33,821 nt of DNA from assembly GCA_947627195.1 (NCBI GenBank), contig CANQVC010000015.1:1-33821 (forward strand), read 5' to 3'. Under the pieces are notes generated by a model that saw only the letters and a list, made by a program, of their open reading frames with translations, searched no databases and was not told the origin of the DNA. Origin of the DNA: an uncultured Bacilli bacterium (GTDB lineage: Bacteria; Bacillota_I; Bacilli_A; ML615J-28; CAG-698). Position numbers and translations under genes: made by a program. Below, one piece after another: positions 175 to 27,190 of the stretch (positions are counted from its first letter, which is position 1; each line of letters starts with the position of its first letter).

Positions 175-205
175 TTGCACAATTTTTAAAAAAGTGTGAT
201 ATAAT
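175..205 (+). promoter_or_regulatory. Promoter of the giant CvpA-repeat gene
   Basis: TTGCAC at 175-180 and TATAAT at 200-205 are separated by 19 bp. The long spacer is offset by an extended -10, since TGA directly precedes TATAAT. Predicted transcription starts near 212, leaving a leader of about 50 nt before the ATG at 262. Confidence 0.6.
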
Positions 206-261
206 AATATGTCTTATTGTAACTTTATTACAATAATTATAAAGATAGAGAGGTATGAAAG

Positions 262-3200
262 ATGTTAGACGTTTTACCATTTGCACCTGAACTAATTTTA
301 CAATATTTTGATTTGGTCATTTTAGGAATTGTCTTATTATGTGCCCTTGTCGGATTTATTCGCGGAACTTATAAGTCGACATATTATTTTATTGTTACAT
401 TAGTTATTTTCCTAGTAAGTTGGTTTTTATTTGATCCAATTGCGAAAGCAATTCTTAATTTTGATATGTCGTCATTTAATATTTCAATTGATGGGACTAA
501 ACTCACAACTTTAAAGGAATATGTTTTTAATTTAATTTCTACTAATTCACCTGATTTTGCCTGGATTGTTGAAAATGGAAGTTATTCTAGTGCTTTAGTA
601 GTTGATGTATTAACAATGGCAATAAGATTAGTATTATTAATTCTTACAATTATTCTTTCATTTACTTTATATAGAATAATAAGTGGTATTATTTGGCTTA
701 TTGTACGTCCGAAAAAATCTAAGAGAAAAAAGAAAAAAATTGGCTCAAGATTTGGCGGAATGGGAATTGGTGCTTTAAAAGGTTTGGGATATTCTTTATT
801 ATTGGTTTTTATAATTGCTGGAATATCTTCAGTTACCCAATCAATTACATCAATTACCGAAGAAACAAATGAACATGCATTAGTTTTAGTTGGTGATACA
901 GCTACTTTAGTTAAACTTGATAAGGATTCTAATAATTTAGATGATACTATATTTGGTGAATATAGTGATGTTATTGATTTATTAAATGGTTATCATGATA
1001 CCATAACAGGTAAAATATTTGGAGCTGTAAAATTTGGTAAAGCTGGTTCGATTGATGAAATGATGTTTGATTCAATCTTTTCTGTTAAGAATAAAAATGG
1101 TAATGTGAAACTTAGAAAAGAATTACAAACAGTTGCTAAAGCTTTATCAACAGATGCTGTTAAAGAAATAATGAGTGATGGTTTCTCTACTGAGAAATTA
1201 TTTGAATTAGATAAAGAAGATATAAAGAAAATAGCTGATGCTTTATCAGAATTAAAAATTGTTAAAGTTGTTGTCCCAGTTGGATTAGAATTTGTTTTAT
1301 ATTCTGATGTTTTAGGCGAAGAATTTGCTTCAATAAAAGAAGAACTAGCTAATAATTTTGCTCAATTTAATGATATTAATTATTCAGCTGATATTAAAAG
1401 ATTAGGATATGCTTTTGCCGACTTTACTGATTTAATACCTGGTGGAGATTTTGAAAATATTGATTATTTAAATTTAGATGCTGATTTAGTAGATCAAATT
1501 ATGTCTCAAATTGGTGAACTTGAATTATTAGAAACAGTTGCGCCAATTGCTGTATCATATATATTAAATATGGAAAATATTAAATCAATATTTGAAGAAA
1601 TGAATATGCCAATTGAAGATTTAGGTTTAACTGATCTAACAGGAAAAGATTGGCAAACAGAACTAGGAGTAAATTTACCTAGTATTTATCGCTCTTTCCA
1701 AGAAATTGGTATTAAAATGATTGAATCAGAAATTGATTTAACTGATATAGATATTAGTAAAGTCGATAATTTAAGTGAAAAAATAATGGATTCAAAAATT
1801 TTAGGTAAAGCTGTACCTGTTTTATCTAAATTTGCTGTTAATGAATTTTTACCAGATCAATATAATGATTTGTTTGATGTTAAAGTATTTGATGAAATAA
1901 CTCAAGAAAATCTTTGGGGCGATGAACTTAAAAATTTATTAAAAGCGGCTATTACATTAGTACAAAAAGGTATTATGGAACCTGATGTTGACCCACTGCA
2001 AGTAATCAAAGATTTAAAAGCTAAAGATATTGAAGATTTAGGATTATATTTATCTCAAAGTATTATTATTACTAAACATTTAAATCCACTTATTGATTTC
2101 TTATTTGCTGGTTCTATATTTGGTGATGGTACATTACAAGGATTATCTGATGAAGAATGGCAAAATCCTTTAGAAATTCAATCATTATTTTTTGCTATTC
2201 AAGATATAGTTATAACAGGTTTACTTGAATCTGATGATCCAATGTCATCTATTGGTAGTTTAGATGATGCAAGAATTCAATCATTAAGTGATAATTTATC
2301 TTCATCTAAATTTATTACCAAGAATTTAAATCCAATTATTAGCCTTGTTATGGAACAAGCTGGATTTGAAAAAGATACATTACAAGGTTTAACTGATGAA
2401 GAATGGCAAGATAAAAACGAACTTAGATCATTATTAATGGGTATAAAAGATATTTTTAGTATTGGTTTACTAGATTCAAATGATCCAATGTCAGCTCTTG
2501 GTAATTTAGAAGATACGCAAATTCATTCATTAAGTACTAATTTATCTTCATCTAAATTCATTACCAAGAATTTAAATCCAATATTAGATATGGTAATGTC
2601 TAATGCTAATTTAGGATTTGAAATTCAAGGATTAGATGAATCAAAAGGAGAAAAGTGGACAGAAACCGAATTATATTCAGTATTTAACTCTATTTGTATA
2701 TTAGCAAAGAATAATATAATTAGTGATTCAACTTCAATAAAATCATTTAAAAATATTGAAGATAATGCAATTGAGGATTTAGCAAAATCAATTTCTAACT
2801 CAGTATTTATGAAGAAAAATCTAAGTGGTATTATGGATTTTGCTTTAGATGAAGTAGAATTTAATATTTATCATTTAAATCAAGATGAATGGACAGTAAC
2901 TGAAATTGATGCAATATTTAAATCTGTAAAGATTGTTGCTAACATGAGTGAAAATGGTGAATTTTCAATTGATACAATAATGAATATTGAAGAAAATGAT
3001 TTAGATACATTCTTACAATCTAAATTAATGAGAGAAAGTATTAAAAATACTTTAATAGATTTAGCACAAGATGGTAAAGAATTAGAAGTATTAAAAGGTG
3101 TTGAAGAAAATCCTAACCCTAATAAATATGTATGGGATGATGTTACTTCTCCAACAACTATCTCTTTAAAAAATCAATCATATGATATAACTCCAGTGAC

Positions 3201-6200
3201 AAATGCTAATAAATATTATATTTATGGTGACGGAATCTTTTTAGGATCTACTTCATTAACATCTATTAATTTAGATTCATTTAATGAAACATTCTTAAAT
3301 AATAATACTTATGAAAATTATACTGCTGTTGCCGTAACAAAAATTGGCGAATTAAATCATTTGTTTAGAGCTATAACATGTTTAGAAATAAATGATGTCG
3401 ATAACTTTAATTTAGATTTAAAACAAGTAATTGATAATCAAGATCAAATATTATCATCATACATTTTATTTGAAACAATTGTTGATCAAATAATTAATTT
3501 AGGTGATGATGTAATTAATCTTCCGGAAAAATATAAAGCATCAAGTGATGCTTGGCGTGATGATGCCGTAACAAAAGAAAATGGCGAATTAAAAAGATTA
3601 TTAAGAGCTTTAGATTTAACATTAGGAGTTAGTACATCTGATGAACCAATATATGTTCAAGATATTTCATCTGATTCAATTAGTTTAAGTAATGTAATTG
3701 ATAATCGTAGTGAAATATTAAAGTCCGAAATTTTATTTGAAACTGTTGTAAGTGAAATAAAAAAACAAAATGGAACTTTAGTTATTCCAGAAGATTATTT
3801 AAATGATGATACAAATGAAAAATGGAAGAACCATGATGGTAAAAATGGTGAATTAGAACGTCTATTAAATGGTGCTAGTAAAATTATTAATTTTGAAGAA
3901 AATGATTCAATGAATATTGATATTGATAAAATATATTTAGATGTTATCATCAATAATAAAGATGAAATATTATCTTCTAAAATATTAACAGCAACATTTA
4001 TGAAAAATATAATTGATTTAAATGGTGATTCTTTATTAGTTCCAACTGAATATATTGAAGATTCTGTCGTTAGTGATTCCAAGTCAACTATTTGGGAAAA
4101 TACATATGATGAAAAAGATAATGTAATTACTCATGGAGAATTATCTAGATTATTAGATTCTTTAAAATTAGCTTTACAAATAGAAGATGGATCTAATATG
4201 AATATTAATTCAATTAATACTGATCAATTAGATTTATATACAATTATTAATAATCGTAATATTCTTTTATATTCTGATATATTAACGGCAACTATTGTGA
4301 AAAACATTAAAGCAATGGATGATGTTATTACCATTCCTGAAGAATATCTAAATGATGATATTTCATTATGGGAAAATAAATATGAAAATAAAACATCTAA
4401 TAATGTTGATGCTAAATTAGTTATTGAAGGTGAATTATCTAAATTATTAGAATCTATTAGAATTACTTTAAATCTACAAGAAGATTCTGATAAGCCATTA
4501 GATTCAATTACTGCTGATGATATTTTATTATATCAAGTAATTGAACAAAGAAATGAAGTATTAAAATCTGTTATTATGACAGCAACAATTGTTAGTCATA
4601 TTCAAGATTTAGATGGAGATGCTTTATATTTACCTACTATGTATAAAAAAGAAACAACTAATTATTTAAATAATTGGGAAAATAGTTATAATGATAAAGA
4701 AGTAACTAAAGAAGGAGAATTATCTAAATTTTTATTATCAGTTCAACATGCATTAGACATAAATGAACAATCATCAATGGATGAATTTAATAATTTAAGT
4801 AGTAATGATCTTACTTTAAATAAAATATTAACTGAAAAAGATAATATTTTATATTCTGAAGTTATGACTTCAACGATTGTTCATCATATTCAAACAATTG
4901 ATAATGATTCAATTGTTATTCCAGAAAAATATCAAGATAATGATGATATTTCTTTATGGATGAATGAATATACAGATGATAAAGTAGTTTCAATTCATGG
5001 TGAATTATCTAAATTTTTAACATCAATTGGTATTGCATTAGAAATTAGTGAAGAAAATGATAAATCAATTAACGATATTGATGCTAATTCGATTCGTTTA
5101 TATAATATTATTCAAAAGAAAGATAATATTTTATATTCAGAAATAATGACAGCAACGATTGTGAAAAACATTCAAGATTTAGGAAATGATGGTACATTAA
5201 CTATTCCAACAAAATATTCTAGTAGCACATTAGGTTATTTTGATTTATGGAAAAATCAATATCTAGATGATACAGTTGATAATATCGATGCTAATGTTAA
5301 TATTGAAGGTGAATTATCTAAATTCTTAGATTCTGTTGGCAATGCTTTAGAATTAAATGAAGAATCAGATTCTAATATTAATAATATTTCTGTTGATAAT
5401 ATTCATTTAGTCCATATAATTGATGAAAGTGATAAAATACTTTATTCTGAAGTAATGATGGCAACTTTTGCGAAAAACATTCAAGATTTAAATAATCAAG
5501 GATTAGTTATTCCTAAAGAATATCAAGGAAATGATTACGATAATTGGAAAAACATTTATGAAGATAAATATGTTGTGAAAACTAATGGTGAATTATCTAA
5601 ATTCTTAACTTCAATTAAAGTAGCCATGAAATTAGATTCAACATCAACTGATACTGTTGATAATATTGATAGTAAAAATATTTATCTAAATACAATAATT
5701 AAAGAACAAGATATTATTTTAAAATCAGATATTATGACGGCAACATTTGTATCTAATATCCAAGATTTAGATAATAATGGTATTAATATTCCTGATCAAT
5801 ATAATGTAAGAGAAGATATAACATTGTGGAAAAATATTTATAATAATGATAAAATTACTAAGATGGAATTAGCTCATTTTATTACTGCTTTAGGAATTGC
5901 AATGAATATTGATGAAAATACTGATATGCGTATTGATGAAATAGATGCTTCTAAAATTAATTTAAGTCAAGTAATGAATGAAGAAAATAGTACTATTGTT
6001 TTATTATCACAAGTATTTTCTGAAACTCTTAAAGTACAAATAATTGAAAATGCTAATGATGGTTCTAAATTAAAATTACCTGAAGGATATGATGATCCAT
6101 CTAGCATTAATCATATTGATTGGAATAATGTTTATGATAATGATAATTTAGTTGAACAACATGAATTAGCTTATTTATTAATTGGTTTAAATGAAATTAA

Positions 6201-7695
6201 AGATGATGATACATCAATTGATAATATGTCTAGCTTTAATTTTAATAATTTGTTTGATAAGGAAAAACAAAATATTATTCTTAAATCAAGAATATTATCG
6301 GAAACTATTATTACCGAAATTATGAATTCTGATAGTTTAATTGCTCCTGATGGTTATAAATTAAAAGAAGCTAATGATCGTAGTGAATGGTATAATCAAT
6401 ATCAAGAATTTAATATTAATAGTGATGTAAGTAAATATGGAGAAATTGCTCATTTATTAAATGCTTTAAATATTTTATTAGATGATAATAATTTTGCCAC
6501 ATTAGATACATCATCTATTGATTATACTAAGATATTTAATTTAGATTATCAAGATGAAATATTAAAATCAAAAGTTTTATCAGAAACTATTATCCATAAT
6601 TTAACAAACAATGAAGGTGTATATATTCCCGAAAATCAAGGACTAACTGATAATGAAATAAGTACAAATCATCGTGATAATTGGTTTAATATATATCAAG
6701 ATGATATTTGTATTCAAAGAAACGAATTAGCGGCAATGTTAAATGCATTTAATGAAATATTATCAGATGAACAAAAGAACAACTTGGATAATATTTATTT
6801 CAGTCAAGTAATTAATCAAACATTAAATGTTATTCAAGATGAAGTCAAGAGAACAACAATCTTAAAATCATTTGTTGTTTGTGAAAGCATAGTTTGTATA
6901 TTATGTGATCAAAATGCAATTAAGAATCATATTGAAGAAGCAGAAGTTCATAGCAATAAAAACTTTGTTACTAACAAACTTGATCGAAGTGATTGGTATA
7001 AGATTAGTGTTGATGATATAACTCATGAACGTAATGTTGAACATTTAGAATTGTGGAATATTTTATTTGCTTCATCAAGATTATTAAATGGTAAAAAGTT
7101 TGCTGATATAAGTGAATTTAGTATGGATGATATGATGTCATTAACATTAAATGTTTCATTTAATCCAGTTTCTTATGAAATTGAAAACAGTGAAATTGAA
7201 ATGATATTAAATTCATATATTATGGAAAGTATCTTTGCAAAATTAATTGAAACTGAAGGTATATTTGAAAGCTTCAATGGCTTAATTACTAAACCAAATG
7301 ATGTTAAATGGTATCGTAATGAACTTCAAGAAAATGAAGAATATGATTTACAAAACTTCCTTGAATCATTATTCTTAATGAAAGATTACATCAATTATAA
7401 GAATCCAAATGCTGATACAATAACTCATTTCTATCAAATGGATGATTCATCAATTAGTAAATTAGGTGTTTCAATGGTTCATTCACGTATATTTAAATCA
7501 TCAATTGCCCAAATGTATAATACATTCTTTGAAATTCCTTATAAAGCAGCTTTATTAATAGTTTCAGATGCTAAAGGATGGGATGAAGTTAAATTTGTTC
7601 AAGAAGAATATGATTCATTAGATCGTATATCTGCTCATGATAAATTTGTTACAGAATTTAAGACTATATTAGATGTTATTAAACAATCATTATAA
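262..7695 (+). CDS. Giant CvpA-like membrane protein with tandem repeat modules (2,477 aa)
   Basis: The N-terminus looks like the CvpA (colicin V production) family. Membrane segments lie at about residues 17-33, 41-57, 120-148 and 176-196. A polybasic cytoplasmic loop at 149-162 is followed by a Gly-rich RFGGMGIG stretch typical of CvpA. By the positive-inside rule, about 2,280 residues after the fourth helix face outside. These consist of about 23 degenerate modules of 78-108 residues from about residue 287 to the end, interrupted near 950-1025 by a beta-rich, Fn3-like stretch. The modules are rich in Asn, Asp, Ile and Leu and poor in Cys. No enzyme motif or sorting signal is visible. The start is set by GAGAGG about 8 bp upstream. 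The gene has its own promoter and a hairpin after the stop, so it is probably monocistronic. The CvpA assignment is fairly sure; function is unknown, with a surface stalk, adhesin or envelope scaffold as possibilities. Confidence 0.9.
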   Translation: MLDVLPFAPELILQYFDLVILGIVLLCALVGFIRGTYKSTYYFIVTLVIFLVSWFLFDPIAKAILNFDMSSFNISIDGTKLTTLKEYVFNLISTNSPDFAWIVENGSYSSALVVDVLTMAIRLVLLILTIILSFTLYRIISGIIWLIVRPKKSKRKKKKIGSRFGGMGIGALKGLGYSLLLVFIIAGISSVTQSITSITEETNEHALVLVGDTATLVKLDKDSNNLDDTIFGEYSDVIDLLNGYHDTITGKIFGAVKFGKAGSIDEMMFDSIFSVKNKNGNVKLRKELQTVAKALSTDAVKEIMSDGFSTEKLFELDKEDIKKIADALSELKIVKVVVPVGLEFVLYSDVLGEEFASIKEELANNFAQFNDINYSADIKRLGYAFADFTDLIPGGDFENIDYLNLDADLVDQIMSQIGELELLETVAPIAVSYILNMENIKSIFEEMNMPIEDLGLTDLTGKDWQTELGVNLPSIYRSFQEIGIKMIESEIDLTDIDISKVDNLSEKIMDSKILGKAVPVLSKFAVNEFLPDQYNDLFDVKVFDEITQENLWGDELKNLLKAAITLVQKGIMEPDVDPLQVIKDLKAKDIEDLGLYLSQSIIITKHLNPLIDFLFAGSIFGDGTLQGLSDEEWQNPLEIQSLFFAIQDIVITGLLESDDPMSSIGSLDDARIQSLSDNLSSSKFITKNLNPIISLVMEQAGFEKDTLQGLTDEEWQDKNELRSLLMGIKDIFSIGLLDSNDPMSALGNLEDTQIHSLSTNLSSSKFITKNLNPILDMVMSNANLGFEIQGLDESKGEKWTETELYSVFNSICILAKNNIISDSTSIKSFKNIEDNAIEDLAKSISNSVFMKKNLSGIMDFALDEVEFNIYHLNQDEWTVTEIDAIFKSVKIVANMSENGEFSIDTIMNIEENDLDTFLQSKLMRESIKNTLIDLAQDGKELEVLKGVEENPNPNKYVWDDVTSPTTISLKNQSYDITPVTNANKYYIYGDGIFLGSTSLTSINLDSFNETFLNNNTYENYTAVAVTKIGELNHLFRAITCLEINDVDNFNLDLKQVIDNQDQILSSYILFETIVDQIINLGDDVINLPEKYKASSDAWRDDAVTKENGELKRLLRALDLTLGVSTSDEPIYVQDISSDSISLSNVIDNRSEILKSEILFETVVSEIKKQNGTLVIPEDYLNDDTNEKWKNHDGKNGELERLLNGASKIINFEENDSMNIDIDKIYLDVIINNKDEILSSKILTATFMKNIIDLNGDSLLVPTEYIEDSVVSDSKSTIWENTYDEKDNVITHGELSRLLDSLKLALQIEDGSNMNINSINTDQLDLYTIINNRNILLYSDILTATIVKNIKAMDDVITIPEEYLNDDISLWENKYENKTSNNVDAKLVIEGELSKLLESIRITLNLQEDSDKPLDSITADDILLYQVIEQRNEVLKSVIMTATIVSHIQDLDGDALYLPTMYKKETTNYLNNWENSYNDKEVTKEGELSKFLLSVQHALDINEQSSMDEFNNLSSNDLTLNKILTEKDNILYSEVMTSTIVHHIQTIDNDSIVIPEKYQDNDDISLWMNEYTDDKVVSIHGELSKFLTSIGIALEISEENDKSINDIDANSIRLYNIIQKKDNILYSEIMTATIVKNIQDLGNDGTLTIPTKYSSSTLGYFDLWKNQYLDDTVDNIDANVNIEGELSKFLDSVGNALELNEESDSNINNISVDNIHLVHIIDESDKILYSEVMMATFAKNIQDLNNQGLVIPKEYQGNDYDNWKNIYEDKYVVKTNGELSKFLTSIKVAMKLDSTSTDTVDNIDSKNIYLNTIIKEQDIILKSDIMTATFVSNIQDLDNNGINIPDQYNVREDITLWKNIYNNDKITKMELAHFITALGIAMNIDENTDMRIDEIDASKINLSQVMNEENSTIVLLSQVFSETLKVQIIENANDGSKLKLPEGYDDPSSINHIDWNNVYDNDNLVEQHELAYLLIGLNEIKDDDTSIDNMSSFNFNNLFDKEKQNIILKSRILSETIITEIMNSDSLIAPDGYKLKEANDRSEWYNQYQEFNINSDVSKYGEIAHLLNALNILLDDNNFATLDTSSIDYTKIFNLDYQDEILKSKVLSETIIHNLTNNEGVYIPENQGLTDNEISTNHRDNWFNIYQDDICIQRNELAAMLNAFNEILSDEQKNNLDNIYFSQVINQTLNVIQDEVKRTTILKSFVVCESIVCILCDQNAIKNHIEEAEVHSNKNFVTNKLDRSDWYKISVDDITHERNVEHLELWNILFASSRLLNGKKFADISEFSMDDMMSLTLNVSFNPVSYEIENSEIEMILNSYIMESIFAKLIETEGIFESFNGLITKPNDVKWYRNELQENEEYDLQNFLESLFLMKDYINYKNPNADTITHFYQMDDSSISKLGVSMVHSRIFKSSIAQMYNTFFEIPYKAALLIVSDAKGWDEVKFVQEEYDSLDRISAHDKFVTEFKTILDVIKQSL
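1120..7695 (+). repeat. Degenerate protein-level tandem repeats inside the giant gene
   Basis: Modules were registered on the GEL..LL/GELSKFL-type helix start. Anchors fall near residues 287, 377, 474, 555, 638, 720, 803 and 881, then 1029, 1108, 1196, 1292, 1390, 1485, 1580, 1683, 1776, 1868, 1967, 2060, 2154, 2262 and 2361. Spacing is 78-83 residues in several early units and mostly 92-103 later. A typical later module reads W.N.Y, GELSKFL.SI, I..I....I.L, D.IL.S.IM, TATIV..I, then IP..Y. The best-conserved units lie between nt 4100 and 5860. Earlier and later units are more diverged, consistent with repeated internal duplication. Anchors were placed by eye. Confidence 0.85.
2281..2582 (+). 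repeat. Near-identical 56-bp DNA repeat pair in the giant gene
   Basis: 2281-2336 and 2527-2582 match at 53 of 56 positions, exactly 246 bp (82 codons) apart. Both encode the segment SSSKFITKNLNP with its flanks. This is the clearest DNA-level trace of module duplication in the gene. Confidence 0.85.
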
Positions 7696-7729: not shown

Positions 7730-7767
7730 GGGCTACTTTAATATCATAAATTAGAGTAGCCCTTATT
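7730..7767 (+). terminator. Hairpin after the giant gene
   Basis: gggctact (7730-7737) pairs with agtagccc (7755-7762), and ttattt follows. The stem is GC-rich for this genome. The U-tract is interrupted, so termination may be partial. Confidence 0.6.
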
Positions 7768-19808: not shown

Positions 19809-21716
19809 ATGAAAAAGTTTTTACTTTGTGCTTTTATGTTTGTTTTTGTTGTTGCTTTTTCTGGATGTAATAATACAAAAATTCCTGAAGATGAACTTGA
19901 AACAATAAAAGAAGAATTTGAAAAAACATTAATGTTTGAAACATTTGGTGAAAAAATAGATTTACCTACATCTATTCCTGATCAAAAAGGTAGTAAAGTT
20001 AAATGGCAATCTTTTTCTCCAGATGTTATTGATGATGAAGGAAATGTTGTAGGACTTGATTCAACAAAAAAAGGTGCTGAAAAAATAACTTTATCTTACA
20101 ATGCTACTGTTGGCAGTCAAACTTTTGATGGTATGGTTGATGTCGTTGTTTATTATAGTTCATTAGATGAAGTTGCTGAAAAATTTAAAAGTCAATTCTC
20201 AGTAATTATTACTCGTAATTATGATGTTATAACTAATTATTATGATGCATTCAATGTTGAATGGCATAGTAGTAATCAACAATTATTTGATGATAATGGT
20301 AGATATTTCCAACCAGCAAATGATACTATTGTTACAGTCAATTTCACAGTTTCAACATTATATGGTACATCTAAAAATGATTATTCAGTTGATTTAAATA
20401 TTCAAGGTATGCCAGCATTACAAAAAGTAGATAATACTTATCAATGGTTACTTGCTGAAGGAATGAAAGATTTATATTTATCAAATGATATAACTCTTCC
20501 TACTAAATATGATTTATACAATACAACAATTACATGGAAATCAAGTGATCCATCTATAGTTTCCCCAGATGGTAAAGTAACTCATTATGTTTTTGAACGT
20601 TATGTTACATTAACAGCTGTTATTACTTTAGATAAGAGTATTAGAGAATGTCTATTTGAATGTATTGTTGAACCTCTTGATTTATCTAAAATGACAGAAG
20701 ATGAAATTTTAGAAAACTTCTTACAAGCTATAGCTGTTGATGAATATCATGGAGTTAATTTTAATTCAATTTATGATGACATTAATCAATCATTTGGTTT
20801 CTTAAATTTCTATGAAAATAAAGATGCTGAAATTGAAGAAATGATTTTACCACAAGGTCAAAAAAATAGACCAGGTATTAAACGTAAAGTAGAATTAGTT
20901 GTTGTTCATGATACAGGTAATAATGGAAATGGCGCTACAGCAAGAGCTAATGCAAGTTATGTATATAGTGGTTATAGTGGTCAATCTACTGGTTGGCATT
21001 ATACAGTTGGTAATGATGGTATCTTTAGAACAATCCCTGATGATGAAGTTGCATATCATGCAAATGGTGAAGCTGATACTCCATTTAATTTAATACCAAC
21101 TGGTATTAAAGCTACAGCAAAAAAACCTAATGCTTATATTTCGGCTCATTATTTATACATCAATGGTGAAAAAACTAATATTTCTGTTCCTGATGAAGAT
21201 AGAATATTTGCATCTGATGGACCTATGGTTGAAGTTGTAAATGGTGAATATTATGTTGACCAAATGTGGTATTGTAGTGGACATGGCTATAATGCTAATA
21301 TTGGTGGTAATGCTAGTGGTATTGGTATTGAATCTGCTGTTAATCCAGGCACTGATTATGCTACAACATGTCGTAAACTTGCAAAATTAATTGCTGAATT
21401 ATTAATTAAGCATGGATTAAATCCTTTACGTATAGTTCAACATAATACAATGAGTGGTAAAGATTGTCCTAAAGCTATTCGTGATACTCATTTCTGGTAT
21501 AATTTAAAAGATATGGTTTCACTTGAAAAATTTGCTAAAGAAAATTTAAGTTCTTATCAATTTACATGGACATCTAATAGTACTAATGTTATGGATAATA
21601 CAGGAAAAATTGCTAAAGATTTAAATGGCGTTAAATCTGTTTCTTATAGCGTTTCCGTAACTAAGAATGGTACTGAAGTATTATCTAAAAATTATACAAC
21701 TAATTTAGTTTATTAA
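19809..21716 (+). CDS. Surface lipoprotein N-acetylmuramoyl-L-alanine amidase with Ig-like domains
   Basis: The N-terminus is a lipoprotein signal peptide with lipobox FSGC, Cys20 becoming the lipidated residue. About 280 residues of beta-rich, bacterial Ig-like repeats follow (about 35-110, 115-205 and 215-295, the third with ITWKSSDPSIVSPDGKV). An Amidase_2/PGRP-type domain spans about 360-560: VVVHDTGN (His367), GWHYTVGNDG, GIGIESAV (Glu508), VQHNTMSGKDCP (His545, Cys553). His367, His545 and Cys553 are the expected zinc ligands. A final Ig-like segment ends the protein. The enzyme would cut the MurNAc-L-Ala bond in peptidoglycan outside the membrane, in cell-wall turnover or separation. 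AAGGAGG lies 4-5 bp before ATG 19809. The gene is flanked by its own promoter and terminator. Confidence 0.93.
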   Translation: MKKFLLCAFMFVFVVAFSGCNNTKIPEDELETIKEEFEKTLMFETFGEKIDLPTSIPDQKGSKVKWQSFSPDVIDDEGNVVGLDSTKKGAEKITLSYNATVGSQTFDGMVDVVVYYSSLDEVAEKFKSQFSVIITRNYDVITNYYDAFNVEWHSSNQQLFDDNGRYFQPANDTIVTVNFTVSTLYGTSKNDYSVDLNIQGMPALQKVDNTYQWLLAEGMKDLYLSNDITLPTKYDLYNTTITWKSSDPSIVSPDGKVTHYVFERYVTLTAVITLDKSIRECLFECIVEPLDLSKMTEDEILENFLQAIAVDEYHGVNFNSIYDDINQSFGFLNFYENKDAEIEEMILPQGQKNRPGIKRKVELVVVHDTGNNGNGATARANASYVYSGYSGQSTGWHYTVGNDGIFRTIPDDEVAYHANGEADTPFNLIPTGIKATAKKPNAYISAHYLYINGEKTNISVPDEDRIFASDGPMVEVVNGEYYVDQMWYCSGHGYNANIGGNASGIGIESAVNPGTDYATTCRKLAKLIAELLIKHGLNPLRIVQHNTMSGKDCPKAIRDTHFWYNLKDMVSLEKFAKENLSSYQFTWTSNSTNVMDNTGKIAKDLNGVKSVSYSVSVTKNGTEVLSKNYTTNLVY

Positions 21717-26476: not shown

Positions 26477-27190
26477 ATGGGAATTATTGACATCGTAATT
26501 ATTGTAGTATTAGCATTGCTTGTATTGATTGGTGTGTTCAAAGGATTGTTTAAACAATTACTTGGAACGTTTGCTTTATTTATTGCTATCATATTAGCAT
26601 TTCTTGTTTGTAAACCTGTTAGTGCCGCCCTTGATAAATCAAGTTTAGGTGAAAATTTAAGTGAGAAAATCACTGGATGGGTTTCAGAAAAAAGTGATTT
26701 GTTTACTGAATCTATTCAAAATACTGATGAATCAGTTATTAATGAAGCGTTAAGTGAAGTAGGTATTCCTAAATTTCTGCATAAAATTATTATAAATGAA
26801 GCTGTTGAAAAAATAGATGATATGAATCTTGGGGAATATGTTGGTTTACGACTAGCTCATTTTGCCATTGTATGTATATCATTTATTGTACTATTTATTG
26901 TAATATTTATTTTATTAAAAGTTTTATCGCATATTTTATCCAAAATCATTCATGGCACATTACTTGCACCAGTTGATAGGGTATTAGGTGGTGTTGTAGG
27001 CTTTATTAAAGCTGCAATGATAGTTAGTATTGTAATGATATTTTTATCTTTTTTAGCAAGTCTTGTACCAAGTATTAATGATTTTGTAATTGAAGATATG
27101 AAAATTAATGCTGAGGGATTTGGAATTGCAAAATTCTTTTATACAAATAATCCATTGTTAACACTTATTTCTAAATATGTGTTTAAATAA
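26477..27190 (+). CDS. cvpA: CvpA family membrane protein
   Basis: This 237-residue protein has the CvpA four-helix plan. Helices lie at about 4-19 and 28-45, then a soluble loop of about 80 residues, then helices at about 130-152 and 172-195. VDRVLGGVVGFIKAA is the family's Gly-rich motif before the last helix. CvpA is needed for colicin V production in E. coli and affects envelope integrity in several bacteria; its molecular job is unclear. This is the normal-length version of the domain that begins the giant protein at 262, and both share the topology placing the C-terminus outside. GAAAGGAA lies about 9 bp before the ATG. Rubrerythrin follows 21 bp downstream, probably in the same transcript. 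Confidence 0.92.
   Translation: MGIIDIVIIVVLALLVLIGVFKGLFKQLLGTFALFIAIILAFLVCKPVSAALDKSSLGENLSEKITGWVSEKSDLFTESIQNTDESVINEALSEVGIPKFLHKIIINEAVEKIDDMNLGEYVGLRLAHFAIVCISFIVLFIVIFILLKVLSHILSKIIHGTLLAPVDRVLGGVVGFIKAAMIVSIVMIFLSFLASLVPSINDFVIEDMKINAEGFGIAKFFYTNNPLLTLISKYVFK

What the first reader, a model, noticed from the sequence alone, without database searches (positions are those of the whole stretch)
262..7695. Giant CvpA-anchored repeat protein of an unrecognised family
CvpA proteins are normally about 160-240 residues. Here a CvpA-like four-helix domain is followed by about 2,280 residues made of some 23 degenerate, probably helical modules with one beta-rich insertion. The basic loop at residues 149-162 places the repeats outside the cell. 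No LPXTG, cell-wall-binding or enzyme motif is present. A CvpA domain used as the membrane base of a giant surface fibre would be a new role for it. The length and repeats are seen; the CvpA match and topology follow family knowledge; the fibre idea is inference.
Basis: partly seen in the sequence, partly recalled or inferred. Interest (0 to 1): 0.8.

Follow-up and report, generated by a model that had tools for sequence, protein, structure and literature searches.

The report
CvpA-anchored giant surface repeat protein
This gene encodes a 2,477-residue protein that is probably pinned in the membrane by a small CvpA domain and carries about 21 repeated modules outside the cell; relatives up to about 6,000 residues occur across a group of gut and environmental Bacilli, many of them without a cell wall, and never in sampled genomes that have sortase, the usual enzyme for anchoring surface proteins.

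Summary
Window 262-7695 (+) is one intact 2,477-aa gene with a ribosome-binding site, a promoter-like site and a terminator. Its N-terminus is a real, divergent CvpA domain: PF02674 matches 21 of 44 family N-termini, and a profile comparison with ordinary CvpA gives 97.5% probability. A repeat HMM finds 21 modules (residues 460-2449). AlphaFold models three modules confidently (pLDDT 88), and no PDB or viral structure matches them. The protein is not an oddity. In its GTDB class, 124 of 395 sampled genomes carry a hit and 122 carry an accepted giant. The CvpA domain is N-terminal in all 44 members examined with an intact start. Ectodomains are strongly acidic and cysteine-poor, and none has LPXTG. 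The gene occurs in walled and wall-less lineages, even within one family, so it does not depend on peptidoglycan. It is absent from every sampled sortase-positive genome (0 overlap between 122 and 108), although this is confounded by phylogeny. The best explanation is a membrane-anchored, sortase-independent surface stalk or coat whose length evolves by tandem duplication. Outside location, fibre shape and function are inferred. MarP is a precedent for a CvpA-type domain holding an exported domain, so "a new role for CvpA" is only partly new.

The parts
262..7695 (+). Giant CvpA-anchored repeat protein gene, 2,477 aa
   Evidence: single open frame from ATG to stop
176..205 (+). Promoter-like site TGCACA-18-TATAAT with TG before the second hexamer
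   Evidence: consensus match only; such sites are as frequent in shuffles
247..253 (+). Ribosome-binding site AGAGAGG, 8 nt before the ATG
   Evidence: read directly from the sequence printed
304..861 (+). CvpA/Colicin_V four-helix membrane domain, residues 15-200
   Evidence: PF02674 residues 16-192; hhalign with ordinary CvpA prob 97.5; four hydrophobic helices
706..750 (+). Basic loop between helices 3 and 4, residues 149-163, RPKKSKRKKKKIGSR
   Evidence: conserved in the family alignment; positive-inside rule puts it in the cytoplasm
862..1638 (+). Juxtamembrane region, residues 201-459, alignable across relatives, with degenerate module-like stretches
1639..3126 (+). Type-A modules, residues 460-955, about 82-aa period, six copies
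3127..3300 (+). Beta-rich insert between type-A and type-B modules, about residues 956-1013
   Evidence: no Pfam or PDB match; a longer gap between modules at the matching place in several relatives
3301..7608 (+). Type-B modules, residues 1014-2449, about 84-106 aa each, 15 copies
   Evidence: AlphaFold of three modules pLDDT 88, pTM 0.88
7609..7695 (+). C-terminal tail without LPXTG or membrane helix
7730..7762 (+). Intrinsic terminator, 13-bp stem and T-rich tail

Best explanation
The protein is a membrane-anchored giant surface protein. The CvpA four-helix domain inserts with the basic loop inside, so everything after helix 4 (about 2,280 residues) is exported. This part is a conserved juxtamembrane base followed by a linear array of about 21 modules of roughly 80-105 residues that acts as a long acidic stalk or coat on the cell. 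It needs neither sortase nor peptidoglycan. Array length changes by tandem duplication of central modules. I think it most likely serves surface contact (adhesion, spacing or coat formation) in Bacilli that lack sortase. Shown here: the CvpA homology, the repeats, a confidently modelled module without a known counterpart, the distribution, and recent duplication in relatives. Inferred: outside location, extended shape, function.
For: CvpA domain. Four helices with a conserved basic loop. Modules; the same module in 38 of 46 members, 513 copies, the only control hits being five in L052 2-1564, itself a fragment of a family member. Confident model with no PDB or viral match. Ectodomain net charge from -5 to -16 per 100 aa; Cys 0.14% against 0.93% in neighbouring ORFs. 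Sortase 0 of 36 carriers and zero overlap across 395 genomes. Present with and without peptidoglycan genes. Neighbouring modules up to 94-98% identical in some relatives (any-pair maximum 100%). Precedent MarP.
Against: No experiment on location. The AlphaFold model of the N-terminus failed (pLDDT 36). The positive-inside rule is indirect. An exported amidase in the same window has 1.1% Cys, so low Cys is not a general export mark here. Extended shape was not measured. Members from f2, f7 and f18 have no detectable copy of this module. No ligand, adhesion domain or conserved operon points to one function.
Confidence: 0.62

Rival explanations
1. Mechanical or osmotic envelope element: the acidic array forms a layer that supports or senses the membrane, tied to c-di-AMP signalling, comparable in role to the staphylococcal giant protein Ebh.
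For: Kept after peptidoglycan loss within family f1. In six f1 relatives the next gene downstream is a c-di-AMP receptor, PF06153, E about 1e-35 for the two tested and the other four in the same BLAST cluster. Literature links Ebh with hyperosmotic tolerance (search result).
Against: The window's own genome has no PF06153 gene. Most carriers outside f1 have other neighbours. Lengths from 722 to about 6,000 aa do not look like a fixed structural part.
Confidence: 0.17
2. The CvpA part is an active channel or transporter and the repeats are its exported gate or substrate-capture domain.
For: A published proposal that CvpA may export solutes such as deoxycholate (PMC6705877). The base is better conserved (57% between G000 and G002) than the later array (42%).
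Against: Two ordinary-length CvpA genes are present in the same genome. Array length is free to vary, which is odd for a gate.
Confidence: 0.1
3. The repeats lie in the cytoplasm as an intracellular scaffold on the membrane.
For: No signal peptide other than the membrane helices; alpha-helical repeats are common in cytoplasmic scaffolds (general knowledge).
Against: The basic loop before helix 4 and the four-helix count put the C-terminus outside. Acidic and Cys-poor composition. MarP has the same topology with an exported C-terminus.
Confidence: 0.07

Closest known systems
CvpA / Colicin V production protein (PF02674), e.g. E. coli CvpA
   Same: Four-helix membrane domain, G-x3-G after helix 1 and R-x2-G-x3-G before helix 4; homology shown by profile comparison
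   Different: CvpA ends after the membrane domain (162 aa in E. coli, 237 and about 195 in this genome); here about 2,280 residues follow
MarP family serine protease (NF033740), Mycobacterium tuberculosis Rv3671c
   Same: N-terminal CvpA-type four-helix domain (E. coli CvpA and this genome's CvpA both match the MarP model) and an exported C-terminal domain
   Different: MarP carries one trypsin-like protease; here there is no enzyme, only a module array
Staphylococcal Ebh and other giant repeat surface proteins
   Same: Thousands of residues of repeated modules on the cell surface
   Different: From general knowledge Ebh uses a signal peptide, different three-helix modules and a C-terminal anchor; no sequence relation was tested here

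Membership tests
CvpA/Colicin_V domain (PF02674) | Match to the family profile | tested here: met
   21 of 44 family N-termini, best E 4.1e-10; the window protein itself is below the gathering score
CvpA/Colicin_V domain (PF02674) | Profile-profile match with ordinary CvpA | tested here: met
   hhalign probability 97.5, E 8.7e-12 over 190 columns
CvpA/Colicin_V protein (stand-alone) | Protein of about 160-240 aa ending after the membrane domain | tested here: not met
   2,477 aa; relatives 722-6,049 aa
MarP family | Trypsin-like protease domain after the membrane domain | tested here: not met
   no such Pfam or NCBIfam match
Sortase-anchored surface protein | LPXTG-type signal and sortase in the genome | tested here: not met
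   no LPXTG; no PF04203 in this genome
Giant surface repeat protein | Exposed on the cell surface | not testable with these tools
   only topology and composition arguments
Giant surface repeat protein | Long array of related modules | tested here: met
   21 modules
Known repeat fold | Structural match of the module | tested here: not met
   best Foldseek E 0.71 in PDB, 1.0 in BFVD, with a pLDDT 88 model; AlphaFold DB was not available

The most novel reading that the evidence does not exclude
CvpA-anchored giant arrays are a lineage-wide surface system that takes the place of sortase-anchored proteins in these Bacilli, was already present before the repeated losses of peptidoglycan, and in wall-less members forms the main protein coat of the cell.
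Probability: 0.25. Interest if true: 0.85.

Novelty: new variant of a known kind. Interest (0 to 1): 0.62.

Why it matters
Published work predicts that several of these uncultured orders lack sortases and have lost peptidoglycan many times, and concludes that surface protein display is probably reduced (PMC10868615). This family suggests the opposite: very large surface proteins are kept, on a different anchor, with and without a wall. It gives a concrete candidate for the surface of wall-less Bacilli, a testable use for the poorly understood CvpA domain, and a repeat module with no counterpart found among solved structures.

Tried and rejected
The first multi-module alignments were out of register because overlapping windows align on themselves and were replaced. 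Conserved operon idea: neighbours differ between families, apart from the c-di-AMP receptor in part of f1 and a trypsin-like peptidase gene in the three f22 loci read. Fn3-like identity of the insert: no support. PDB sequence searches gave nothing meaningful. The hit in G220 is a 260-aa ordinary CvpA and the one in G152 sits in a 269-aa frame; both were left out of the counts. Paper searches for a description of this family found none, within an open-access library only.

Full report
What is there. The window is contig C15:1-33821 of a 1.84-Mb genome, 98% complete. Bases 262-7695 (+) form one open frame of 2,477 codons from ATG to a stop. An AGAGAGG lies 8 nt before the ATG (sequence), a promoter-like site lies at 176-205 and a 13-bp terminator at 7730-7762. 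The promoter match is not above chance. Downstream come tRNA-Cys, lgt and polC, so the gene looks like a unit of its own.

The CvpA domain. For the window protein alone Pfam gives Colicin_V at E 0.0018, or 3.6e-5 when only the N-terminus is scanned, below the curated cut-off. The family settles it. Twenty-one of 44 N-termini match PF02674, best 4.1e-10, and a profile comparison with this genome's own CvpA plus E. coli CvpA gives 97.5% probability over 190 columns. Residues G31, G35, R163, G166 and G170 are invariant in the 19-member alignment; G31 and G35 stay invariant, and R163 and G166 nearly so, in the 44-member one. Hydrophobicity gives four helices near 15-33, 43-61, 116-134 and 174-192. 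A basic loop between helices 3 and 4 is conserved. By the positive-inside rule the C-terminus is outside.

The repeats. An HMM from hand-cut modules finds 21 domains over residues 460-2449, none in 200 shuffles. Iterating it over 46 family members finds 513 copies in 38 of them, with spacings mostly 70-110 aa. Its only control hits, five in all, are in L052 2-1564, which is itself a contig-end fragment of a family member. Members from f2, f7 and f18 keep the CvpA base but have no detectable copy of this module. In several relatives neighbouring central modules are 80-98% identical (L039, L099, L103), the sign of recent tandem duplication; in the window protein the maximum is 62%. AlphaFold models three type-B modules at pLDDT 88 and pTM 0.88: short strands ahead of several helices in each module. 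Foldseek finds nothing below E 0.7 in PDB and 1.0 in BFVD. A library of predicted cellular structures was not available.

Distribution. In the same GTDB family 23 of 28 genomes match the full protein. In the order 35 of 43 match the base profile, with open frames up to 6,056 aa. In the class 124 of 395 match, of which 122 were accepted as giants. The phylum sample gave hits only in this class, but every genome it listed was of this class, so it does not test other classes. Among 44 members examined with an intact start the CvpA domain is always N-terminal and no LPXTG is present. Families f2 and f22 often carry two such genes, a larger and a smaller one.

Cell wall. PF00905 transpeptidases are missing from most carriers outside f2 and f8. 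Of the 122 accepted carriers, 36 have PF00905 and 86 do not. MraY gives the same split within f1: present in 10 of the 26 f1 genomes searched, absent in the rest, in step with PF00905. The giant gene is found on both sides. So it does not depend on peptidoglycan. Field et al. (PMC10868615) describe repeated peptidoglycan loss in the orders RFN20, RF39 and ML615J-28, and absence of srtA/B sortases in RFN20 and ML615J-28.

Sortase. PF04203 is absent from all 36 carriers tested. Over 395 genomes, 108 have sortase and 122 have the giant gene, with no overlap. The naive Fisher p is 1e-21, but the genomes are related and the two traits sort by family, so the effective number is small. By family the tally is 12 with the giant, 8 with sortase, none with both. 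The base profile loses power with distance, so absence elsewhere is less certain than presence.

Location and function. Ectodomains carry a net charge from about -5 to -16 per 100 residues, and family-wide cysteine is 0.14% against 0.93% in neighbouring genes. That fits export, as does the MarP precedent, in which four N-terminal helices hold an exported protease (PMC4992679); the CvpA-MarP link was tested by E. coli CvpA and the local CvpA matching the MarP model, weakly for the former (E 0.004) and better for the latter (E 2e-5). Low cysteine is not universal among exported proteins here, since the amidase at 19809-21716 has 1.1%. My best reading is a sortase-independent surface stalk or coat. 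The c-di-AMP receptor gene next door in six f1 relatives keeps an osmotic role open, but the window's genome lacks it.

Verdict. Observation confirmed. Interpretation partly supported: base, repeats and probable exposure stand; the fibre remains inference; the anchoring role of CvpA has a precedent. The distribution across walled and wall-less, sortase-free Bacilli is the more interesting result.

Noticed in passing
L042 14795-15118, L044 13150-13473, L045 10998-11339, L049 8818-9141, L051 6837-7160, L052 8185-8523: A c-di-AMP receptor (PF06153) gene follows the giant gene directly in six f1 relatives; two were tested against Pfam, the other four cluster with them by BLAST. The window's own genome has none.
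   Followed up: partly
L095 3665-4522, L096 4031-4858, L097 13586-14458: A divergently transcribed gene beside the paired giant genes in three f22 genomes; the L095 copy is a trypsin-like peptidase, reminiscent of MarP split into two genes.
   Followed up: no
window 26477-27190: An ordinary 237-aa CvpA gene lies in the same window; a third, about 195 aa, is on contig C2 of the genome.
   Followed up: partly
window 19809-21716: Exported-looking protein with atrophied Ig domains and an N-acetylmuramoyl-L-alanine amidase domain, fitting a walled cell.
   Followed up: no
family f1 genomes: Peptidoglycan genes (PF00905, mraY) are split within one GTDB family and even within genus g14, which suggests several recent wall losses.
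   Followed up: partly
G194:C1:982238-983569: The f10 homologue in G194 has an in-frame TAG.
   Followed up: no
L095, L097, L098, L101, L105, L106 C-termini: Giants of f8, f13 and f22 share a C-terminal motif like YEDGDxxTFLTxxAI, perhaps a half-module that caps the array.
   Followed up: no
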